35,991 nt of DNA, from positions 1 through 35,991 of the forward strand of contig JAJRBZ010000071.1 in the NCBI GenBank assembly GCA_028679185.1, read 5' to 3'. Numbering within the stretch: position 1 is the stretch's first letter; each line of letters starts with the position of its first letter. Below are positions 153 through 9,845 of this stretch, in pieces. Both the position numbers and the translations under genes were made by a program. The notes under the pieces were generated by a model. That model made no database searches and was not told where the DNA came from. It saw nothing but the letters and a program-made list of their open reading frames with translations. The stretch is from Methanoregula sp. Lineage in GTDB: Archaea > Halobacteriota > Methanomicrobia > Methanomicrobiales > Methanospirillaceae.

Positions 153-1070
153 ATGGAAAGCGGGTATTTTTCCGAGTGGCTGAAAAGCTACCGCAATTAC
201 CTCCGGATGCGTAATTACTCCCCCCGCACTCTCAACAGTTATGAGCAGGTTATCAAACATTTTGCCTACTATGTCTGGTTGCGCCGCCATACTGATATAA
301 CCAAACTTGTTATCTATTGGAAGGACTTCAATACTGCACGGCTGGATACCGATGTAGAGGTTACTCCTGTAATAATTACTGATTTCCTGTCATTCGTTTC
401 GTCTACGCAAACATACAAACCGAAGACCTTTCACCGTATAATATCCACGCTAAGTTCATTTTACCGGTTCCTGTATACCCAGGGTGCGGTTACAACAAAT
501 CCGCTGACTGGTATCGATCGACCCCGGATCAAACAACAGGAAGTCAAATACCTCAAGCATAACCAGGTCCTGCGATTATTGGATTCGATTGAAGATCTCC
601 GAGACAAACTCATTGTCAGAACAATTTATGCTACCGGAGTCCGGGTATCAGAGCTCTGTAATATGAATATAGAAGATATTGATTTTGACGAACATACCAT
701 CAGAATACGGGGAAAAGGCGATAAAATCCGCACAGTTTTTGTTGACGATGATACTCTTGCAGAAATCTTAAAATTCATCAGTAACAGGATTGCCGGACCT
801 GTGTTTGTCGGTCAGCAGGGAAAAAACATCTCATCACGGGCAATACAACATATTTTCAAAAATTATGCCCCTTCGGGCATTACTCCACATAAAATTCGGC
901 ATAGCTATGCAAGTGAACTCTACAAACGATCAAAAAACCTAAGGGTAGTGCAGGAAAACCTTGGCCATACTTCTATTAAGACTACGGAAATTTATCTGCA
1001 TACCGATATCGATGAACGAAGACAGGTATACCAACAGTATTTCCCGCTTTCTGAGAATGAAGAGAAATAA
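153..1070 (+). CDS. xerA: XerA-like tyrosine recombinase
   Basis: A 305-residue site-specific recombinase of the phage-integrase/Xer superfamily, which breaks and rejoins DNA through a 3'-phosphotyrosine. The N-terminal SAM-like core-binding domain covers about residues 1-115 and the catalytic domain about 130-300. The full catalytic set is visible: R164 in TGVRVSEL, K188 in RGKGDK, H246-x-x-R249 in HKIRHSYASEL, H272 in LGHTS and the nucleophile Y281 in TTEIYLHT. Length and compactness fit archaeal XerA, which resolves chromosome dimers at dif, better than a larger virus integrase. It lies about 860 nt left of the tRNA-Gln att site and outside the repeat-bounded element, so it is not clearly the element's own integrase. 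I saw no convincing dif site beside it. The start at 153 fits the TATA spacing. Confidence 0.88.
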   Translation: MESGYFSEWLKSYRNYLRMRNYSPRTLNSYEQVIKHFAYYVWLRRHTDITKLVIYWKDFNTARLDTDVEVTPVIITDFLSFVSSTQTYKPKTFHRIISTLSSFYRFLYTQGAVTTNPLTGIDRPRIKQQEVKYLKHNQVLRLLDSIEDLRDKLIVRTIYATGVRVSELCNMNIEDIDFDEHTIRIRGKGDKIRTVFVDDDTLAEILKFISNRIAGPVFVGQQGKNISSRAIQHIFKNYAPSGITPHKIRHSYASELYKRSKNLRVVQENLGHTSIKTTEIYLHTDIDERRQVYQQYFPLSENEEK

Positions 1071-1930: not shown

Positions 1931-2003
1931 ACCCCCGTAGTGTAGCGGTCAATCATGCAGGACTTTGGATCCGGCGACACCAGTTCGAATCTGGTCGGGG
2001 GTA
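1931..2003 (+). tRNA. tRNA-Gln (anticodon TTG)
   Basis: A complete 73-nt cloverleaf without encoded CCA. The acceptor stem ACCCCCG (1931-1937) pairs fully with CGGGGGT (1996-2002), followed by discriminator A2003. The T-arm is ACCAG/CTGGT around TTCGAAT. The anticodon loop CTTTGGA (1963-1969) gives anticodon TTG (1965-1967), for Gln. The anticodon stem CAGGA/TCCGG has an A-G opposition at A1959/G1973 (positions 28/42), while the other four pairs are canonical. In archaea this tRNA is charged with Glu and converted by GatDE, encoded at 13173-16227. A TATA-like AAATTATTAG lies about 28 nt upstream. The 3' end is duplicated at 5100-5117, marking it as an integration target. Confidence 0.94.
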
Positions 2004-2004
2004 T
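1987..2004 (+). repeat. Left att-like repeat copy within tRNA-Gln
   Basis: The 18-bp sequence GAATCTGGTCGGGGGTAT covers the 3' end of the tRNA: the last four T-loop bases, the T-arm 3' strand, the acceptor 3' strand and the discriminator. It is identical to 5100-5117 in the same orientation. Recombination between the copies would excise the intervening DNA and regenerate an intact tRNA. Confidence 0.75.
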
Positions 2005-2041
2005 TCGGAGCGAAATTCGGACAATTTACGCTCAGTTTTCA

Positions 2042-2068
2042 AAAAAAGGTCAATATTTGACCTTTTTT
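2042..2068. terminator. Strong bidirectional-looking hairpin after tRNA-Gln
   Basis: AAAAAAGGTCAA and TTGACCTTTTTT form a perfect 12-bp stem around a TAT loop, with A-tracts on the left and T-tracts on the right. It lies about 40 nt after the tRNA and would give a T-rich 3' end on either strand. It probably separates tRNA transcription from the element's genes. Confidence 0.6.
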
Positions 2069-2087
2069 GTTTATGATAACAATTTTT

Positions 2088-2168
2088 AGAGTATCGAACT
2101 CGGAACGGGACCGAGCCCGTGCAGACGAACATGACCGAGAGTCATCATACCATGATTACACGGCCCTG
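2088..2168 (-). pseudogene. tRNA-like relic (low confidence)
   Basis: Read on the minus strand, this stretch has a D-arm-like region (2146-2165). An anticodon-like hairpin follows at 2131-2145, ATGAC/GTCAT around TCTCG. There is also an ACGGG/CCCGT hairpin (2105-2120) and a TTCGA motif at the distal end. With a 7-nt loop the anticodon would be CTC (Glu). I found no complementary acceptor ends, and the T-arm pairing is broken, so this is not an intact tRNA. It could be a decayed tRNA carried on the element or a chance resemblance. Confidence 0.2.
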
Positions 2169-2260
2169 ATCTATGGGCTTGAGGGGAGAAAATCGGCCGA
2201 TCTAGATTTCCATTCGAAGACAGATACAATAGACACGGGGTGTGGCTTTCGCCAGCAATT

Positions 2261-2716
2261 TCATATCCATCTGTGCACTGAGTGTTGATAGTGTTCGTAC
2301 TTTTGCCCGAATATCTTTTGTAAATTTCTCTCTTCAAACGGGATGATGACTACGTGTATCACTGAAAAACAAATAACAGGTGCAATAAACGCCGTTATTG
2401 AGCCAAAAATAATTGCTGCACCTGAGGTTGTGATTACATATGCGAGATACATCGGGTTGCGGGAAAGAGAATAGAAGCCAGCTGTGATAAGCGTTGATGG
2501 TACTCCTCCCGGATCTGTCGATGTGTGTGTTGCTTTGAGCATCGAAAGAGTGTAAATCGCCAGACCAAGACCTGCAGCAACAACTACCCACCCGATCAAG
2601 TTGACAGGATAGGGGATAATTTCAGTAATGGGGAGAACATGGTCTAAAAAATACGCTAATAGAATCGAGCCAATGAGGGTTGCATCGGGAATCGAATTAT
2701 AGATTTTCTTGCTCAC
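2261..2716 (-). CDS. Isoprenylcysteine carboxyl methyltransferase/PEMT-family membrane methyltransferase
   Basis: A 151-residue integral membrane protein with a GTG start at 2716. It has about four hydrophobic segments (near residues 12-28, 38-60, 90-105 and 105-128). The family signature is clear: GFYSLSRNPMYLAYV in the middle, then the C-terminal PFEERNLQKIFGQKYEHY block, which in this superfamily contributes to SAM binding. Relatives methylate prenylcysteines, phospholipids or other small lipophilic substrates; the substrate here cannot be read from sequence. A possible 37-codon frame (2697-2810, minus, ATG start) overlaps its 5' end but is unconvincing. It is cargo of the putative tRNA-Gln element. 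Confidence 0.8.
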   Translation of the reverse strand: MSKKIYNSIPDATLIGSILLAYFLDHVLPITEIIPYPVNLIGWVVVAAGLGLAIYTLSMLKATHTSTDPGGVPSTLITAGFYSLSRNPMYLAYVITTSGAAIIFGSITAFIAPVICFSVIHVVIIPFEERNLQKIFGQKYEHYQHSVHRWI

Positions 2717-2964
2717 GATATTCTTTAACTTTTCTTTTCATCCCCAATATCATTAACGTGTCATTCACACAGAATGCGGGATTATAGATATCTTGCATTT
2801 TGCCACCCATCAGATTCGAAATCAGTTATCTGAAAAAATCGGTCAGCGCACTCTGCCTGAAAGTTCAAGATGCGCTCACTTTTTTGAAATCTTAAAATTG
2901 AATTAAAACAGCCGCTTACCTGCCATAGCTGATGTATCCGGGCGACACGAGCGACTCAATAAAC

Positions 2965-2970
2965 TATAAA
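2965..2970 (+). promoter_or_regulatory. TATA box for the small Cys-rich protein gene
   Basis: TATAAA within CTATAAAAG lies about 57 nt upstream of the ATG at 3025, predicting a leader of about 30 nt. This agrees with the SD-like tract just before that ATG. Confidence 0.45.
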
Positions 2971-3024
2971 AGTGCCCTGATGGAAAATGATTCATCCAGT
3001 CAATGATCTGGGGTGGTGAAAAAT

Positions 3025-3228
3025 ATGGAATCATCAGACGCAATACATAAAATTATAAATCCCTCTTATGAGTGCGATATTTGCAGGTGCCGATTGGAAG
3101 AAGGTGATTATATTGCCATCATTGGTAAGACACCGCCAACTGGTTTATCGATACCATTAGGGAGAGCGGATACTATTCTGAAAAATGTTGGAAAGATTTA
3201 TTGTGAACAGTGTTTCAGGAAACGATGA
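3025..3228 (+). CDS. Small zinc-ribbon-like protein (67 aa)
   Basis: A small protein with two CxxC knuckles: CDIC in the N-terminal third and CEQC near the C-terminus. They are separated by about 40 residues containing EEGDYIAIIGKTPPTGLS. Four cysteines in two pairs suggest a single structural zinc site; I recognise no named family. I chose ATG 3025 rather than GTG 3013 or 3016 because GGTGGTGA just upstream matches the archaeal anti-SD sequence at a 5-nt spacing, and the GTG codons lie within that SD. It is cargo of the putative element, and its function is unknown. Confidence 0.55.
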   Translation: MESSDAIHKIINPSYECDICRCRLEEGDYIAIIGKTPPTGLSIPLGRADTILKNVGKIYCEQCFRKR

Positions 3229-3313
3229 AGAGTTTTATTTCTGGTGATTCCGCCATTTTGACTATCGTGGAAAATGACATCAAATCTCCAGGCATTTATT
3301 CAGGTAGGGAACC

Positions 3314-3673
3314 TCAGGGTGTTTTTCCAAAGCGCCTCAAACTCATGATAAGGATGATAATCCCAATAATGAAAGTAGTCACTCCAACTACAGCCCATGA
3401 CGGTGATCCGCTGACAATTTCTTCACAGTTCGCGACACATAATATTGGACGTATCTGAAGAATTCCTATTCCTTGCAGAGACCATAACAGGCCAAGAAAT
3501 GCTATAAAAGCGCCGATTAATCCTCCGGCTATTTGTTTTCCATTCATACTCGATCGAATTCCATCTCCGATATTAATTAAAATATTTTTTCTATTTGTAG
3601 GATTATGAAGGTATTGGGCAAACAACTCAAAATTCATACCGATCTCATATACCGTATATTTTTCATCCTCCAT
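3314..3673 (-). CDS. Hypothetical membrane protein with two TM helices (119 aa)
   Basis: The N-terminal soluble part (about residues 1-45) contains NFELFAQYLHNPTNRKN. Two strongly hydrophobic helices follow, around residues 48-72 (GGLIGAFIAFLGLLWSL) and 92-111 (WAVVGVTTFIIGIIILIMSL). Between them is a short loop with two cysteines (ILCVANCEE). A basic tail, LRRFGKTP, ends the protein. I recognise no family. Its start overlaps the end of a truncated upstream frame (3634-3810), so the locus may be rearranged. It belongs to the cargo of the putative integrated element. Confidence 0.5.
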   Translation of the reverse strand: MEDEKYTVYEIGMNFELFAQYLHNPTNRKNILINIGDGIRSSMNGKQIAGGLIGAFIAFLGLLWSLQGIGILQIRPILCVANCEEIVSGSPSWAVVGVTTFIIGIIILIMSLRRFGKTP

Positions 3674-3810
3674 GGCGTTATTCTATCAATCCCTAACTTC
3701 TCTGCATCATATTGCCTTATCTCAACAATCCTGAATCGCTCTTTATCCGCATTCTTGAAAACCTGAAGGCATTCCTTCTGGAACTCCGTGATGAAGGTTT
3801 TTTGACGACT
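3634..3810 (-). pseudogene. 5'-truncated coding fragment of unknown family
   Basis: An open frame of 58 codons between a TGA at 3811-3813 and a TGA at 3634-3636 has protein-like composition: RQKTFITEFQKECLQVF, then ADKERFRIVEIRQYDAEKLG. It contains no ATG, GTG or TTG near its beginning. It reads like the C-terminal part of a soluble protein whose 5' end has been lost. It overlaps the start of the downstream membrane-protein gene in another frame. It may simply be a chance open frame. Confidence 0.3.
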
Positions 3811-3921
3811 TCAAAAATAATTATTTTTTGTTAAATTTTGCAGATGTTCATATCAGCGTTTTTGGGATTGAACCTGAGCCGAGTCCATGATGTGAACCTT
3901 TATTTCGGCCGGAGTTTCTTA

Positions 3922-3945
3922 TTGTACAACTGTACAAGTTTGTAC
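3922..3945 (+). promoter_or_regulatory. Palindromic operator-like site upstream of the toxin-antitoxin pair
   Basis: TTGTAC-AACT-GTACAA is a perfect 6-4-6 inverted repeat, and a third GTAC follows at 3942-3945, giving GTAC at 3924, 3932 and 3942. A TATA-like AGATATTAAAA lies just downstream (about 3954-3964). Type II antitoxins commonly bind such repeats near their own promoter, so this is a good candidate autoregulatory site. Confidence 0.45.
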
Positions 3946-4010
3946 TGTTGAGCAAGATATTAAAAAATTGAAGATCACAATGTACTCGCAATGCGAAAAG
4001 AGGTGAAGAC

Positions 4011-4244
4011 TTGGCTCAGGCAAAAAGCGAACAGGTGGAAATAGCAAACAAAAGGGTGGCACTCACCCCCAGCACGTGGGCTGCACTCTCGAATATAAAG
4101 CCCCCGGGAAAATCCCTAGGTGATACCGTAGCTGATCTCATCACCGAACATCAGAGGCGGACACTGGAACGGGACCTCGATGAGATTGACGCAAATGGCG
4201 ATTTCATCCCTTGGGAGAAGGCTAAAAAGGAACTCGGGCTCTAA
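4011..4244 (+). CDS. Putative type II antitoxin (77 aa)
   Basis: A 77-residue protein upstream of a RelE/ParE-like toxin. The N-terminal half (VEIANKRVALTPSTWAAL, then KSLGDTVADLITEHQ) resembles the short DNA-binding antitoxins that hold a strand followed by a helix-turn-helix or ribbon-helix-helix. The C-terminal half (RDLDEIDANGDFIPWEKAKKELG) is acidic and looks like a toxin-wrapping segment. The start is TTG at 4011, chosen because AGGTGA (4001-4006) lies 4 nt upstream; the nearby ATG at 3991 is in another frame. The toxin gene begins 12 nt after the stop. The antitoxin role is inferred from arrangement and partial resemblance. Confidence 0.65.
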   Translation: MAQAKSEQVEIANKRVALTPSTWAALSNIKPPGKSLGDTVADLITEHQRRTLERDLDEIDANGDFIPWEKAKKELGL

Positions 4245-4256
4245 ACGGGAGGTATC

Positions 4257-4523
4257 GTGAGGATCAGAATCGAAGACCGTGTATTAGAGTTCATCCGGGA
4301 ACTCCCCGAGAAAGATCGCCGGGTGATTGTCGATCATATCGAGCGGTTGTCTGATCATCCGAATGCGACGGGCAATATCAAAAAACTCCATACTCGCAAA
4401 CCCCGTTGGCGTATGCATATATCGATGAAATACACCCTGATCTATTTCGTTGATTCTGATACGGTATGGATTGACAAAATCATGACCATTGAACAGGCTC
4501 ACAAGAAGTACGGGAAGATCTAA
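4257..4523 (+). CDS. RelE/ParE-family toxin (88 aa)
   Basis: An 88-residue toxin-like protein of typical RelE/ParE length. The family order is visible: MRIRIEDRVLEFIRELPEKD with an early helix, HIERLSDHPNATGNIKKL, the central strand pair in KPRWRMHISMKYTLIY, and a closing strand DTVWIDKIMTIEQAHKKYG. RelE members cut ribosome-bound mRNA and ParE members poison gyrase; the sequence does not decide between them, although the basic central strand and terminal KKYG fit RelE-like folds. The start is GTG 4257 with GGGAGGT a few nt upstream. It is co-transcribed with the antitoxin gene and lies inside the putative tRNA-Gln element, where it could act as an addiction module. Confidence 0.78.
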   Translation: MRIRIEDRVLEFIRELPEKDRRVIVDHIERLSDHPNATGNIKKLHTRKPRWRMHISMKYTLIYFVDSDTVWIDKIMTIEQAHKKYGKI

Positions 4524-5099
4524 CCCGTGAGATATTTTATCCATCCGATTTTGTTAGAAGTGTTTGTTGCATGTTGTTGATCTTCGAGGGGAAACATCCT
4601 CCCACCCGGACAGGTGCCCGTCCTCCCCTCAGGGAGGCTATCCTGATGTGGCCCAGCGGCCTGAGCGAACGCCGCAACAGGGCGCGAAGGTAACGAACCG
4701 CTCTCAAGCGGTGAGTCCGAGCCCCTGTGCGTCGTGCGAGGGAGTCACTGAGCGTTATGCATGAGTACGATCAACAGCAACGAACATGATATGGAGCATG
4801 GTGTGAGAAGCGGACCGGAGCAGCCGCTGGCGCCTGAGCATCGCGACAAGCCGGGGGCGTAATACATCCCAATAATAATCCGTTAAGAAAACAAGGGAGG
4901 TGATGTGAAGCGAGCCGGAGTGCAGTGAGCACAGGCGAGCGGAACGAGAACGAGTGAACATGACCGACCGATCTCCTGTCAACCGTGCGCGACCCATCCC
5001 CTCGGATTGGTGGGGAGGGGTACGGGTGGGGCGGTCCGGAAGATTGTAAAAACCGCGCGATGGGCCCGGATTCGTTAAAGGATTCCAACTATTGGTCAG
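4524..5099. other. GC-rich non-coding segment before the right att-like copy
   Basis: About 575 nt with no gene that I believe. Long frames exist on both strands, but they are Pro/Ser/Arg-rich and look like shadows of GC-rich DNA. The DNA is full of short quasi-repeats of the type gcgagcg/gaacg and hairpin-forming G and C blocks (CCCATCCCC and GGGGAGGGG near 4986-5020). It includes one copy of an interspersed repeat (4772-4813). A strong SD-like GGAGGTGAT at about 4897 leads only into a 7-codon frame. It looks like decayed or repeat-derived DNA within the element. Confidence 0.45.
4772..4813 (+). repeat. Interspersed repeat, copy 1
   Basis: The 42-bp core beginning CAACAGCAACG and ending GAGAAGCGG matches 6770-6811 in the same orientation at 35 of 42 positions by my alignment. 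Weaker similarity (AGTCACTG) extends about 30 nt to the left in both copies. It lies inside the putative element. Confidence 0.55.
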
Positions 5100-5117
5100 G
5101 AATCTGGTCGGGGGTAT
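5100..5117 (+). repeat. Right att-like repeat copy (tRNA-Gln 3' end duplicate)
   Basis: An exact 18-bp copy of 1987-2004, the tRNA-Gln 3' end plus one base, in the same orientation. The flanking bases differ on both sides, so the match is limited to the tRNA end. It is interpreted as the far attachment site of an integrated element. Confidence 0.7.
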
Positions 5118-5342
5118 CCAGATAATCATCCTTCTTCTCAGCACTGCTTTTTTTACAATACCCCTGGCGGCATTACGGTCCGCAACCCGCTCATACTAAA
5201 AGAAATACATCGCAATCTAATTTTCTTTGAATTTACCCTGCAACCGGAGCAGAGTAACGAAAACCGGATCAGTGATGTGATTTATGAAAATTTTGCGAAG
5301 TTTGTCGGTATACTGGTGTCACATTACTCTTCATTGCTTTGA
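5118..5342 (+). pseudogene. 5'-truncated coding fragment next to the att copy
   Basis: An open frame without an early start codon runs from the att copy to TGA 5340-5342. It reads like the C-terminal part of a globular protein: TPGGITVRNPLILKEIHRN, then FEFTLQPEQSNENRISDV, then VIYENFAKFVGILVSHYSSL. The frame stays open back to a TAA at 5076-5078, with no ATG. I recognise no family. Its truncation point near 5117 suggests that it was cut by the integration or a rearrangement. It could also be a chance frame. Confidence 0.3.
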
Positions 5343-5379
5343 ATAGTTTTAAATTACAGTCCGCAGATAATTCTGCAAA

Positions 5380-6690
5380 ATGTCTTATCTCTTTGAGATC
5401 GTCATCATTCTCATTCTGATTGTTATCAATGGCATCTTTGCCATGGCAGAATTCGCCATCGTTTCGGTCAAAAAAACCCGTCTTCAGCAGCGGGCAGATC
5501 AAGGTGACAAACGGGCGGCAGCAGCACTTGAAATCGTGAATGAACCCACACAATTCCTTTCGACAGTACAGATCGGGATAACTCTTGTGGGTATTTTTGC
5601 CGGTGCATTCGGAGGAGCCACGGTCGCAAGAGAACTCGCAGTTTATTTCAAAGATTTCCCTGCAATTGCGCCATATAGCGATCTCCTGAGCATCGTTATT
5701 GTGGTTCTGGTAATCACATATCTGACTCTGATCTTTGGAGAACTCGTTCCAAAACACCTTGCGCTTAATAATGCTGAAAACATTGCTTCCGCTGTTGCAA
5801 AACCGATGCGGCTCCTTTCTGTTCTAACAGCACCGCTGGTGATAATTCTCAGTCATTCAACCGAAGCCATGCTCCGGATCATTCAGTTCCGCAAAATCAA
5901 TGAGCCCCCGGTAACCGAAGAGGAGATCAAGATTATGCTTGCGGAAAGTACCGAAGCCGGTGTATTCGAGAAGGCTGAATTGAGCATGGTAGAAGGTGTG
6001 TTTGAACTTGGTGACCGCCATGTTGATTCCCTGATGACGCACCGCTCTGATATTATTGCCCTTGACTTGAACGATCCCACTGATGAGAACCTGCGGAAAA
6101 TGACTTCGAGCGGGCAGTCCAATTTTCCTGTGTATGATAGAAATCTGGACAATATTGTGGGTATGGTATCGGTAAAGGATGTTCTAATAACGATGGTTGA
6201 AGGCGGCACTCCCGATATCAAAGCCACTGTTAAAAAACCGCTTTTTGCCCCCCAAGCCCTTCCGGTCCTGAAACTCCTTGAATCATTCAAGGAAACCGGA
6301 GTGCATATTGCTCTTGTCACTGATGAATACGGGAGCATTCAGGGTGTTATTACCCTGCATGATATCCTCGAAGCGATTGTCGGCAATGTCCGTACTCTTG
6401 GTGAGCCGGCGGATAATCAAATTGTGGTACGGGAGGATGGCTCATGGTTGATTAACGGGAATACACCAGTTGACAATATCAAGAAAATCTTATCTGTGGA
6501 TTCCTTCCCTGGAGAAGATAAGGGACATTACCGGACCCTTGCCGGGCTGATCCTGTTTATACTGGAGCGGATACCAAAAACAGGTGATTATTTCGAAGTT
6601 GATGGTCTGCGTTACGAGGTCATGGATATGGATGGCAACCGGATCGACAAGGTGCTGATCATGCGAGTTCCCACAGAAACCCCTGCTTGA
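5380..6690 (+). CDS. CNNM/HlyC-CorC-family membrane protein with CBS pair
   Basis: A 436-residue membrane protein of the CorC/HlyC/CNNM family, linked in characterised members to Mg2+ or Na+/Mg2+ transport. The N-terminal CNNM (DUF21) domain covers about residues 1-190 with hydrophobic segments near 1-25, 60-85, 100-122 and 135-155; the family pattern NGIFAMAEFAIVSVKKTRL is visible. A CBS pair follows (about 205-325, including LMTHRSDIIALD and VTDEYGSIQGVITLHDILE). The CorC_HlyC C-terminal domain (about 345-430) contains DGSWLINGNTPVDN and RTLAGLIL. No SD is seen. A TTTTAAATT-like box about 28 nt upstream suggests a leaderless start. It is the first gene to the right of the putative element. 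Confidence 0.88.
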   Translation: MSYLFEIVIILILIVINGIFAMAEFAIVSVKKTRLQQRADQGDKRAAAALEIVNEPTQFLSTVQIGITLVGIFAGAFGGATVARELAVYFKDFPAIAPYSDLLSIVIVVLVITYLTLIFGELVPKHLALNNAENIASAVAKPMRLLSVLTAPLVIILSHSTEAMLRIIQFRKINEPPVTEEEIKIMLAESTEAGVFEKAELSMVEGVFELGDRHVDSLMTHRSDIIALDLNDPTDENLRKMTSSGQSNFPVYDRNLDNIVGMVSVKDVLITMVEGGTPDIKATVKKPLFAPQALPVLKLLESFKETGVHIALVTDEYGSIQGVITLHDILEAIVGNVRTLGEPADNQIVVREDGSWLINGNTPVDNIKKILSVDSFPGEDKGHYRTLAGLILFILERIPKTGDYFEVDGLRYEVMDMDGNRIDKVLIMRVPTETPA

Positions 6691-6769
6691 ACACTATTCC
6701 GCGAAATGGCCAGCTATAACATTATGGCAGTGGTATCTGTCAGTCACTGCAGGGTACGCAGGACTCAAT

Positions 6770-6811
6770 AAACAGCAACGAAAATGATGCGAAGCATGGT
6801 ATAAGAAGCGG
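6770..6811 (+). repeat. Interspersed repeat, copy 2
   Basis: The second copy of the 42-bp repeat (35/42 identical to 4772-4813). It ends directly before the TATA box of the downstream channel gene, so it may have contributed promoter or upstream sequence. The 12-mer GACTCAATAAAC just upstream (6762-6773) also occurs at 2953-2964. Confidence 0.55.
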
Positions 6812-6813
6812 GC

Positions 6814-6820
6814 TTTTATA
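6814..6820 (+). promoter_or_regulatory. TATA box for the channel gene
   Basis: TTTTATA is centred 26 nt upstream of the ATG at 6843, with no SD between them. This is the expected spacing for a leaderless transcript. Confidence 0.5.
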
Positions 6821-6842
6821 CCATCATGCAGAACAACACTGA

Positions 6843-7667
6843 ATGATGAAAACCACCAGTTTGCGGTTCCGTATATATTTCACAATTCTTGCAGCGGTCT
6901 TTCTCATCGGGGTAGTTGGTCTGATAGTCATTGAGAGTTACACCCTTCTCGATGCATTTTATTTTATTATCGTGACCATATCGACGGTAGGTTATGGGGA
7001 TCTGATCCCGCTCACTCCCCTCGGAAAGATACTTGTAATGATTATTATTCTTTCAGGTGTCGGCTGTTTTGTAGGGCTCGTAGCAAATGCAATTGAATAT
7101 ATGATTGATATCAGGGAACGCAGCCAGAGGATAGAAAAACTGAACATGATCATCGGGGTCTTTTATTCTGAAATGGGAACAAAACTGCTCAAAAAGTTCA
7201 GTGCAATAGACCCAGGCATTCATGAGATACACTCCGCTCTGGTTGTATCCAATAACTGGTCGGATGATGATTTTCTAAAAGCGCATATCGCGCTCAAAGA
7301 GCATTCCTACCGGCTTGACAGCAGTGCGCTCTCCTTGCAAGAACTGCATTCTTTCCTTTCACAGTATAAGGGATTCATGCTCGCCCTCCTGGAAAATCCC
7401 CAGATATTCGAGCATGACAGGTTTACCGATCTGCTCCATGCAGTTTTTCACCTGTCAGAAGAATTAATCGCACGCGAACAGCTTATCGGTCTCCCGCAAA
7501 CGGATTATGATCACCTTTCCGGTGATCTGACCCGCGTCTACAGCCAGCTCGTGATCGAATGGCTGGTATATATGCAGCACCTTAAGAAGAAATATCCCTA
7601 TCTCTTCTCACTGGCAATGAGAATAAACCCGTTTGATGTAAATGCATCCGCGATCGTGAGAACATGA
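6843..7667 (+). CDS. Two-TM potassium-channel-like protein
   Basis: A 274-residue protein with the minimal K+-channel pore module. TM1 covers about residues 9-31, the selectivity filter TVGYGD residues 48-53 (STVGYGDLIPLTPLG), and TM2 about residues 62-86. It would tetramerise in the cytoplasmic membrane. The C-terminal 185 residues are soluble and helical (for example QRIEKLNMIIGVFYSEMG and LHSFLSQYKGFMLALLEN). I see no RCK/TrkA-N nucleotide-binding motif (no GxGxxG), so gating may differ from MthK-type channels. Tandem ATG codons occur at 6843 and 6846; either could be used. It may pair functionally with the upstream CBS-domain ion-transport protein, but the repeat between them argues for separate transcription. 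Confidence 0.82.
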   Translation: MMKTTSLRFRIYFTILAAVFLIGVVGLIVIESYTLLDAFYFIIVTISTVGYGDLIPLTPLGKILVMIIILSGVGCFVGLVANAIEYMIDIRERSQRIEKLNMIIGVFYSEMGTKLLKKFSAIDPGIHEIHSALVVSNNWSDDDFLKAHIALKEHSYRLDSSALSLQELHSFLSQYKGFMLALLENPQIFEHDRFTDLLHAVFHLSEELIAREQLIGLPQTDYDHLSGDLTRVYSQLVIEWLVYMQHLKKKYPYLFSLAMRINPFDVNASAIVRT

Positions 7668-8090: not shown

Positions 8091-9845
8091 TCAGATAATA
8101 ATGATGTAAGCGACCAAAGACAGCAGGAATGCCAGGAGCAGCATCGCTAGGGAAAGTGGTGCAACAAAAACAAGCATGGCATTTACTGTGCTGGCAAGCT
8201 GGGAGATCCGGTTGGAGCCAAAGACGACAACACGTTCACAGTGTGCAGTGCTCCCCGCGACTTCTGAGGGTGTAAGATCGTCGATTGCAGCCTGGAGCGC
8301 CTGAATCACATATGATCCGAATTCAGATACCGGCACGTGCATACCCACAGGATTTTTACCGGTGATTGTATTCACGACATGCGAATCAGTAGTCATCACT
8401 TCAGCGTGATCAACGATCGTCAGGATTTGTCCCAGCATCTCTTCGCGCACGCCTTCTGCCATGTTGTTGCCATCGATGAGTATATAGGAAGTGCGTTGCC
8501 CGTCAACCTCGACAACAAGAACCTGGACTCCCAGATCTCCGAACCCCTGCTCCCTGCTGTAAGGGAGCGAAACGTGGGCAACTCCTGTCCTGAAAGAATC
8601 CAGCGGAGTAGTGCGGCACCTGTCCATTGCTTCCAGTGATGCATACTGGTACTCTGTTGCTGTCAGTGTTGCAAGGAGTACCGGTGATGAAAGGTCTGTC
8701 ATGCAGTTGTGCGCATCCACGACAGCAACATGGGGGAACCAGCGGTGACCCTCGGCCATGATAGTCATACCAATAGAAAAATCAACATCTTCTGTTCGCA
8801 GGGGTGAACGGCTGGTCACCAGAAGAACCGAATCACCGAACCGCTGGTAGAGTACCTGCACAGAACCATGAGTGAGTTGACCTGATCTCCCGGCAACGCT
8901 GGAATAGGAAATACCACGACGCGATTTTTGCATGGCATCAATTACCTTATTGATTTCTGTCTCTGAAACGAGATTGAAGTCATGCGTAGCGCACCCGTGC
9001 GCAACCAGCGTTTCATCCTCAAAGTTATCATGCAATACTTTGGGAAGGTTGCCCCCGCCAATCTCACCCATGGGACCGGGGTGCAGGTTGGGCACGGTAA
9101 AAATTATTGGATTTTTATCCCCCCTGTGGAAAAAAAAGCTTACCTGCGGGACAAATATCTCCTCACCAATCTCACGGAAGAAATTTTCCATTCCTTTTGA
9201 GGATCCATCAGTCATATGGGCGATAAATGCATTGATGAAAGCAAGACCGCGTATTTTAAATGCACGCCGGAGCGGGCGTTCTATCATCCAGATAAGAATG
9301 GCAAACCCGAGCCCGAAGACGAAATGAAGTACCAGGGCAAGGATACCGAATGATGGCGAAAAGAGAAGCATACCTGCAAGTATACCGGCACTGCTCTGGG
9401 TGAGCGCCGGGACAAGCATACGCGGAACCCGGTAATCGGCTATTGCTACCAGTACAAAAAGTCGAAGGCCAAAGACAAAGCCCAGCGAGATCGCATAGAA
9501 CAGGGGGATGAGCTTCACCGACGATGCAAGTGCAACAAATGTTATGATCACCCCAAAGACCGTACTGGAAAGGGCGAGGAGTGCTGACCGGTTCCAGGTC
9601 ATCGTTTTACCGTTATACTCGATTAAGGGTTTTGTGAGGATGAAAGCGACTAACGCAGGGATAGTAAATGCAAGAGTACCCGAAAATGGCAGAGCTGAAA
9701 ATGGCAGGATCACCCAGGCACGTACACCTGCGCCATCTATCAACAGGCCAAGGATAATGATAAGAAATAATGAACGTTTCCAGGAAGGCGCAGTGAATAT
9801 AAACCTCGTGAGTTGACCAAGTCTGACATCACTGTCCTGAGTCAT
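8091..9845 (-). CDS. DUF2070 family archaeal membrane protein
   Basis: A 584-residue protein of the archaea-specific DUF2070 family. About seven hydrophobic segments occupy the first 195 residues, including SLFLIIILGLLIDGAG and FGILALVLHFVFGLGFAIL. A large soluble domain (about 210-545) follows, rich in His/Asp motifs (VPNLHPGPMGEIGGG, HGCATHDFNLVSE, VVDAHNCMTD, TTDSHVVNT). The protein ends in one or two C-terminal helices. The conserved HPGPMG, HDFN, DAHN and DSH motifs look like a metal-dependent active site, but no activity is established that I know of. The start ATG at 9845 abuts the stop of Dph6 with no gap, so the two are translationally coupled. It is the last gene of the 12621-8091 run. 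Confidence 0.86.
   Translation of the reverse strand: MTQDSDVRLGQLTRFIFTAPSWKRSLFLIIILGLLIDGAGVRAWVILPFSALPFSGTLAFTIPALVAFILTKPLIEYNGKTMTWNRSALLALSSTVFGVIITFVALASSVKLIPLFYAISLGFVFGLRLFVLVAIADYRVPRMLVPALTQSSAGILAGMLLFSPSFGILALVLHFVFGLGFAILIWMIERPLRRAFKIRGLAFINAFIAHMTDGSSKGMENFFREIGEEIFVPQVSFFFHRGDKNPIIFTVPNLHPGPMGEIGGGNLPKVLHDNFEDETLVAHGCATHDFNLVSETEINKVIDAMQKSRRGISYSSVAGRSGQLTHGSVQVLYQRFGDSVLLVTSRSPLRTEDVDFSIGMTIMAEGHRWFPHVAVVDAHNCMTDLSSPVLLATLTATEYQYASLEAMDRCRTTPLDSFRTGVAHVSLPYSREQGFGDLGVQVLVVEVDGQRTSYILIDGNNMAEGVREEMLGQILTIVDHAEVMTTDSHVVNTITGKNPVGMHVPVSEFGSYVIQALQAAIDDLTPSEVAGSTAHCERVVVFGSNRISQLASTVNAMLVFVAPLSLAMLLLAFLLSLVAYIIII

What the first reader, a model, noticed from the sequence alone, without database searches (positions are those of the whole stretch)
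1987..5117. Integrase-less element integrated at the tRNA-Gln 3' end
An exact 18-bp direct repeat couples the tRNA-Gln 3' end (1987-2004) to 5100-5117. The 3.1 kb between holds only accessory cargo: methyltransferase, Cys-rich miniprotein, membrane protein and toxin-antitoxin, with no recombinase. Such a small element would need a helper integrase in trans, or it is a remnant. The Xer-like recombinase 860 nt to the left is outside the repeats. A self-contained small satellite with a TA module in a methanogen would be worth describing.
Basis: partly seen in the sequence, partly recalled or inferred. Interest (0 to 1): 0.66.

Follow-up and report, generated by a model that had tools for sequence, protein, structure and literature searches.

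The report
Integrase-less island in methanogen tRNA-Gln gene
A 3.1-kb piece of foreign DNA sits in the 3' end of a glutamine tRNA gene of a Methanoregula-type methanogen; relatives carry other islands with the same ends at the same spot, some with the integrase gene that this copy lacks, so it is a real but stranded, known-type genomic island.

Summary
The 18-bp repeat (1987-2004, 5100-5117) is exact and occurs nowhere else in the genome. Comparison with 39 genomes of the genus shows that tRNA-Gln(TTG) is an integration hotspot: 13 have an empty site (tRNA then ion-channel gene), and 8 (this one included) plus one genome of another genus carry an island right end like 4980-5117, ending abruptly at the same base. 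One (G002) is a 60-kb island whose 407-aa tyrosine integrase starts 62 nt after the tRNA. The window's island has no integrase, and its genome has only XerA and an integrase sitting at tRNA-Thr, so no helper for tRNA-Gln is present. Islands in G000, G010 and G015 share only their two ends; their cargoes are unrelated. End similarity does not follow species relatedness (G002-G172 ends 93%, backbone 70%), so the ends are horizontally mobile. Best reading: a cis-mobilizable-element-like (CIME-like) genomic island, integrated by an integrase that is now absent. XerA is the chromosomal gene. Two corrections: 5118-6811 (CNNM gene) is a further insertion before the native flank, and 'self-contained satellite' is not shown.

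The parts
153..1070 (+). Archaeal XerA, chromosomal; outside the island and conserved next to tRNA-Gln in relatives with and without an island
   Evidence: NF040815 286 bits, cut-off 220; present upstream of tRNA-Gln in 16 relatives
1931..2003 (+). tRNA-Gln (TTG), integration target
   Evidence: ARAGORN; Rfam tRNA 55.4 bits
1987..2004 (+). attL: 18-bp direct repeat, T-loop to 3' end of tRNA
2005..2100 (+). Island left end, type A (contains a GGTCAATATTTGACC hairpin)
   Evidence: 82% to G015, 76% to G010 over 96 nt, found only after tRNA-Gln
2101..2152 (+). Tail of a dispersed repeat
   Evidence: 52-nt match adjacent to repeat copies in G002, G009, G031, G038
2261..2716 (-). Cargo: PEMT/isoprenylcysteine-type methyltransferase, 151 aa
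   Evidence: PF04191 1.7e-15
3013..3228 (+). Cargo: Cys-rich 71-aa protein, weakly LIM-like
   Evidence: LIM 0.0039, below cut-off
3314..3673 (-). Cargo: 119-aa membrane protein
   Evidence: no family above cut-off
3768..4816 (+). Horizontally shared segment (TA + start of repeat)
   Evidence: 93.6% over 1051 bp to G004:C51, 1.5 kb from tRNA-Leu; backbone 81-83%
4011..4244 (+). Antitoxin, 77 aa
   Evidence: 83-91% identical in 6 other loci, always just before the toxin
4257..4523 (+). RelE/YoeB-fold toxin, 88 aa
   Evidence: AlphaFold pLDDT 88.5; Foldseek to RelE, incl. M. jannaschii RelBE 3bpq, E 5e-4
4640..4930 (+). Dispersed GC-rich repeat, about 270 bp
   Evidence: about 90 hits in 26 of 39 genomes
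4980..5099 (+). Island right end
   Evidence: 80-87% in G030, G002, G015, G172, shorter matches in G010, G006, G028, G004; always abuts the att copy
5100..5117 (+). attR: second repeat copy; right boundary of island
   Evidence: column identity 94% inside, 26% just outside, over nine loci
5118..6811 (.). Further inserted segment between attR and native flank; no repeat of its own found
   Evidence: absent from empty relatives G012, G013
5380..6690 (+). CNNM/CBS/CorC transporter gene inside that segment
   Evidence: PF01595 2.3e-51; 60-83% orthologues at other loci in relatives
6742..6811 (+). Fragment of the dispersed repeat, abutting native flank
   Evidence: 77% to 4743-4813
6843..7667 (+). 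Ion channel: first native gene after tRNA-Gln in empty relatives
   Evidence: PF07885; about 50-145 nt after tRNA in 13 relatives
8091..9845 (-). DUF2070, conserved downstream marker
   Evidence: PF09843

Best explanation
2005-5117 is a genomic island that entered the 3' end of tRNA-Gln(TTG) by site-specific recombination. A tyrosine integrase of the kind next to tRNA-Gln in G002 and G004 joined the island's att core (GAATCTGGTCGGGGGTAT plus conserved right-arm DNA) to the tRNA T-loop/3' end. This restored the tRNA and left the repeat at 5100-5117. The island carries ordinary accessory cargo and a RelE-type toxin-antitoxin pair, and no integrase. It belongs to a set of islands (G000, G010, G015, more distantly G028) sharing both ends but not cargo. 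It works like a cis-mobilizable element: att sites kept, integration genes absent, movable only if an integrase with this specificity arrives. Shown: empty sites, recurrent ends, integrase-bearing relative at the same site, no such integrase in this genome, ends mobile between species. Inferred: that this integrase type made this insertion; that the att sites still work; that the TA pair stabilises the island.
For: Unique exact repeat. 13 empty sites; in G010, G006, G004b and G172 the second att copy is followed after 47-60 nt by the native ion channel. Right end plus repeat in 8 genus genomes (this one included) and G172 of another genus, always at this locus where the locus can be read; sharp boundary. 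Integrase P0001 62 nt after tRNA-Gln in the 60-kb G002 island, intact also in G004, remnants in G004b, G030, G031, G032. Homologous integrases sit beside tRNA-Leu, Thr, Gly, Glu, Arg, Ser, His. G000 has only XerA and the tRNA-Thr integrase. Cargoes unrelated, ends shared. End identity exceeds backbone: G002-G172 92.9 v 69.5%, G002-G015 94.1 v 72.1%; sisters G002-G028 65.8 v 87.6%. TA fold.
Against: No excision or circular form is shown. The G000 flank after 5117 is not the native flank; a CNNM segment intervenes. The left end (type A) never occurs with an integrase, so the link to P0001 rests on shared att, right end and site. G000 is a draft (97% complete, 104 contigs), so a missing integrase could lie in a gap. 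Many genomes compared are MAGs.
Confidence: 0.8

Rival explanations
1. Plain remnant: an autonomous integrase-bearing tRNA-Gln island (as in G002) lost its integrase and most genes by deletion, and what is left is passively inherited and dead.
For: Such decay is visible at the same site: G004b (1.1 kb, integrase pseudogene plus right end), G032 and G031 (integrase fragments), G030 (truncated integrase after an att copy). 5118-6811 with a repeat fragment at its end looks like still older debris.
Against: A deletion should keep the integrase-type left end, as G004b and G032 do. The window's left end is a different, conserved sequence shared with G010 and G015 at 76-87%, above backbone identity.
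Confidence: 0.35
2. Trans-mobilised satellite lineage: elements with type A left end, shared right end and exchangeable cargo, using the integrase of type B islands in trans as a standing way of life.
For: G000, G010 and G015 (and distantly G028) share both ends, no integrase and no cargo; the right end is common to integrase-bearing islands; ends move between species and genera.
Against: No genome is shown to hold a type A island and a matching integrase together (G004, with the integrase, carries a type B remnant). No replication, packaging or transfer gene. No excised form. The same pattern follows from old CIMEs whose middles were swapped by homologous recombination.
Confidence: 0.2
3. The repeat is not an att site: a chance match or a copy of the tRNA end carried by homologous recombination.
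For: 5117 is not followed by the native flank in this genome.
Against: Expected by chance 0.01 in the window; recurs with the same right end in nine loci; sharp boundary at 5117; native flank follows directly in four relatives.
Confidence: 0.02
4. The neighbouring XerA recombinase (153-1070) integrates these islands at the adjacent tRNA-Gln.
For: It is the nearest recombinase and lies beside tRNA-Gln across the genus.
Against: It is the chromosomal archaeal XerA equivalog, equally present beside empty sites, and islands here have their own, distinct integrase.
Confidence: 0.03

Closest known systems
Cis-mobilizable elements (CIMEs) of bacteria, e.g. ICESt1-related CIMEs; definition in PMC5704250
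   Same: attL and attR kept, no integration or transfer genes, hotspot at a tRNA or gene end, decayed relatives beside it
   Different: Archaeal host; no conjugative parent identified; accretion or excision not shown
Dehalococcoides ssrA genomic islands without integration module (PMC3146451)
   Same: Many islands at one RNA gene, some with and some without a recombinase module, direct repeats marking ends, metabolic cargo
   Different: Serine recombinase and tmRNA there; tyrosine integrase and tRNA-Gln here
tRNA-targeted genomic islands with tyrosine integrase, archaeal classical type (pNOB8-like; PMC8371274, PMC4383910)
   Same: Direct repeat of the tRNA 3' end, whole integrase gene at one end in G002
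   Different: This copy has no integrase; G002-type integrase has a C-terminal zinc ribbon
SSV-type (suicidal) integrase elements
   Same: Integrase fragment directly after att in G030 and G031 looks superficially like a split gene
   Different: In G002 and G004 the gene is whole and lies outside att; G030/G031 are truncations
Phage satellites / hitchers (PMC11389934)
   Same: Small, needs something in trans
   Different: No helper virus, no packaging genes; neither the att 18-mer nor the integrase was found in IMG/VR

Membership tests
tRNA-integrated genomic island | Direct repeat of the tRNA 3' end marks the far end | tested here: met
tRNA-integrated genomic island | Empty site in relatives | tested here: met
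   13 genomes; for this copy the native flank begins at 6812 because a second segment intervenes
tRNA-integrated genomic island | Integrase gene within the repeats (typical, not universal) | tested here: not met
   none in 2005-5117; present in G002 and G004
Cis-mobilizable element (CIME) | attL and attR retained | tested here: met
   exact 18-bp copies plus conserved right arm
Cis-mobilizable element (CIME) | No integration or transfer genes | tested here: met
Cis-mobilizable element (CIME) | Derives from an autonomous integrating element | tested here: inconclusive
   right end and att shared with the integrase-bearing G002 island; left end is not
Cis-mobilizable element (CIME) | Can be mobilised by accretion with a related element | not testable with these tools
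   needs a strain and an incoming element
Satellite with helper integrase in trans | Helper with matching integrase in the same cell | tested here: not met
   only XerA and a tRNA-Thr integrase in G000
Satellite with helper integrase in trans | Excised circular form | not testable with these tools
   no reads or culture; no viral contig holds the 18-mer's first 17 bases
SSV-type integrase element | att lies inside int, gene split on integration | tested here: not met
   whole int outside att in G002 and G004
RelE/YoeB type II toxin (4257-4523) | RelE fold and adjacent antitoxin | tested here: met
   sequence hit alone is weak, TIGR02385 0.048

The most novel reading that the evidence does not exclude
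A lineage of integrase-less archaeal islands defined only by two short conserved ends (about 130 bp left, 85-130 bp right) that move among Methanoregulaceae by borrowing the tRNA-Gln integrase of larger islands, carrying exchangeable cargo from single enzymes up to a CO-dehydrogenase cluster: in effect a natural two-ended cargo vector of methanogens.
Probability: 0.2. Interest if true: 0.65.

Novelty: new member of a known kind. Interest (0 to 1): 0.4.

Why it matters
It defines an integration hotspot and its integrase in the tRNA-Gln gene of a methanogen genus with little described mobile DNA (my search found no paper on Methanoregula islands). The two conserved ends and the 18-bp core give a directly testable att pair and a candidate route by which CO dehydrogenase, sulfur metabolism and anti-restriction genes move between methanogen species. 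As a kind of element it is ordinary.

Tried and rejected
Chance repeat: rejected. XerA as the island's recombinase: rejected. SSV-type split integrase, suggested by G030 and G031 where an integrase C-terminus directly follows att: rejected after whole genes were found in G002 and G004. Viral satellite: the att 18-mer and the integrase were not found in IMG/VR; phage records give only distant integrases. A hidden tRNA remnant suspected at 2100-2165: not supported; it is a repeat tail. att repeats at the tRNA-Leu (G004) and tRNA-Arg (G031) loci that hold the same TA/repeat cargo: none found in the 40-kb stretches read around them, so that cargo unit is near tRNAs but not shown to be an att-bounded element there. 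The toxin profile found no RelE by sequence in the PDB, but the fold search did.
Full report
WHAT IS IN THE WINDOW. The exact 18-bp repeat is there: GAATCTGGTCGGGGGTAT at 1987-2004, covering the T-loop to the 3' end of tRNA-Gln(TTG) 1931-2003 plus one base, and at 5100-5117. With up to three mismatches there is no other copy in the window, against 0.01 expected, and with up to one mismatch none elsewhere in the 2.1-Mb genome. Between the copies lie a PEMT-type methyltransferase, a 71-aa Cys-rich protein, a 119-aa membrane protein and a toxin-antitoxin pair. The toxin has a RelE/YoeB fold (model pLDDT 88.5; best matches include M. jannaschii RelBE 3bpq). No integrase or integrase fragment was found in 2005-6842. 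The window genome belongs to a genus whose named members here are Methanoregula MAGs.

THE LOCUS IN RELATIVES. I fetched the tRNA-Gln locus from the genus and compared it. The common order is xerA, variable DNA, tRNA-Gln, ion channel (window 6843-7667), DUF2070 (window 8091-9845). In 13 genomes (G001, G009, G011, G012, G013, G017, G018, G019, G020, G022, G025, G026, G029) the ion channel follows the tRNA within about 50-145 nt and only one 18-mer is present there: empty sites. In eight genus genomes an 18-mer (exact or with 1-2 changes) outside the tRNA follows a right end homologous to 4980-5117: G000, G002, G004, G006, G010, G015, G028, G030. In a search of 232 genomes of the order the only further case was G172 of another genus, where the right end and 18-mer are followed after 47 nt by the ion channel and then DUF2070. 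In G010, G006 and G004 the second 18-mer is likewise followed by the native gene after 48-60 nt. Aligned over nine loci, mean column identity is 94% in the 18-mer, 80% in the 20 nt before it, declining further upstream, and 26% in the 45 nt after it: a sharp right boundary at 5117.

THE INTEGRASE. In G002 (one contig) the tRNA and the second att copy are 60 kb apart. A 407-aa tyrosine integrase with a C-terminal zinc ribbon (P0001; PF00589 1.2e-28) starts 62 nt after the tRNA. G004 has an 88% identical intact gene at the same place; G004 (second locus), G030, G031 and G032 have remnants. More distant homologues (31-53%) sit beside other tRNA genes: Leu, Thr, Gly, Glu, Arg, Ser, His, so this is a family whose members appear to target one tRNA each (inference from position). 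The window's genome has only two PF00589 proteins: XerA, which scores 286 bits against the XerA model with cut-off 220 and lies beside tRNA-Gln whether the site is empty or not, and a 38% homologue next to tRNA-Thr(TGT). So no tRNA-Gln integrase is present in this 97%-complete draft.

SHARED ENDS, UNRELATED CARGO. The islands of G000 (3.1 kb), G010 (1.6 kb) and G015 (3.3 kb) share by DNA only their first about 125-139 bp and last about 85-130 bp; nothing in between aligns. G028 (16.7 kb with CO dehydrogenase-like and iron-sulfur genes) shares a diverged left end and the right end. The left end of this group differs from that of the integrase-bearing islands, which is why I do not read the window's island as a simple deletion of a G002-type island. 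Similarity of the ends does not follow species relatedness: right ends of G002 and G172 are 92.9% identical and of G002 and G015 94.1%, although their DUF2070 genes are 69.5% and 72.1%; the sisters G002 and G028 (87.6%) have right ends of 65.8%. Likewise 3768-4816 (toxin-antitoxin plus start of a dispersed repeat) is 93.6% identical to a place 1.5 kb from a tRNA-Leu in G004, against 81-83% for the backbone. The DNA has moved between species.

HOW IT MOST LIKELY WORKS. By the established scheme for tRNA-targeting tyrosine integrases (Islander, PMC4383910; archaeal classical integrases, PMC8371274), a circular island recombined its att core with the tRNA 3' end, restored the tRNA and displaced a copy of the core to the far end. 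Shown here: the repeat, empty sites, sharp boundary, recurrence, an integrase at the same site in relatives. Inferred: that this integrase type did it, and that the sites still work. Without an integrase the island matches the definition of a cis-mobilizable element, one that lost integration and transfer genes but kept attL and attR (PMC5704250); the Dehalococcoides ssrA islands without integration modules are a close parallel (PMC3146451). Whether it is a dead remnant or still mobilisable in trans cannot be decided from sequence.

The inserted DNA in this genome extends beyond 5117: the flank that follows tRNA-Gln in the close empty genomes G012 and G013 begins at window 6812. 5118-6811 contains a CNNM transporter gene whose 60-83% orthologues lie elsewhere in relatives and ends in a fragment of the dispersed repeat. 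I take it as an older insertion without a surviving repeat copy (inference). 'Self-contained satellite' is not supported.

VERDICT. Observation confirmed; interpretation partly supported. A new member of a known kind, of moderate interest because it exposes a hotspot, its integrase and a set of shared-end, integrase-less islands in methanogens.

Noticed in passing
window 4640-4930; L139 2670-6506; L140 1912-4848; G002 island: A GC-rich repeat of about 270 bp occurs about 90 times in 26 of 39 genus genomes, often as inverted pairs 2.4-3.8 kb apart that enclose an ArdC-like anti-restriction gene (PF08401 + PF18818), in G031 also the same toxin-antitoxin pair: possibly an unrecognised transposon-like unit.
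   Followed up: partly
upstream of tRNA-Gln in G012, G018, G019, G020, G032, G038; right ends of G002, G006, G172: A 68-bp GC-rich segment (94-97% identical in several genomes) lies about 117 nt before tRNA-Gln and also about 130 nt before the att copy in island right ends; unexplained.
   Followed up: no
G028:C51 tRNA-Gln island (L101): A 16.7-kb integrase-less island with CO dehydrogenase-like (CooS-like), CooC-like, ferredoxin-like and Mrp-type genes between tRNA-Gln and the att copy (gene names by eye from the translations).
   Followed up: no
window 5118-6811: CNNM transporter gene between the island and the native flank, with a repeat fragment at its end; orthologues at other loci in relatives.
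   Followed up: partly
L049 1179-1652 (G030), L050 9228-9434 (G031): In two genomes a truncated integrase C-terminus is joined in frame directly to the att 18-mer with an identical junction, mimicking an SSV-type split gene.
   Followed up: partly
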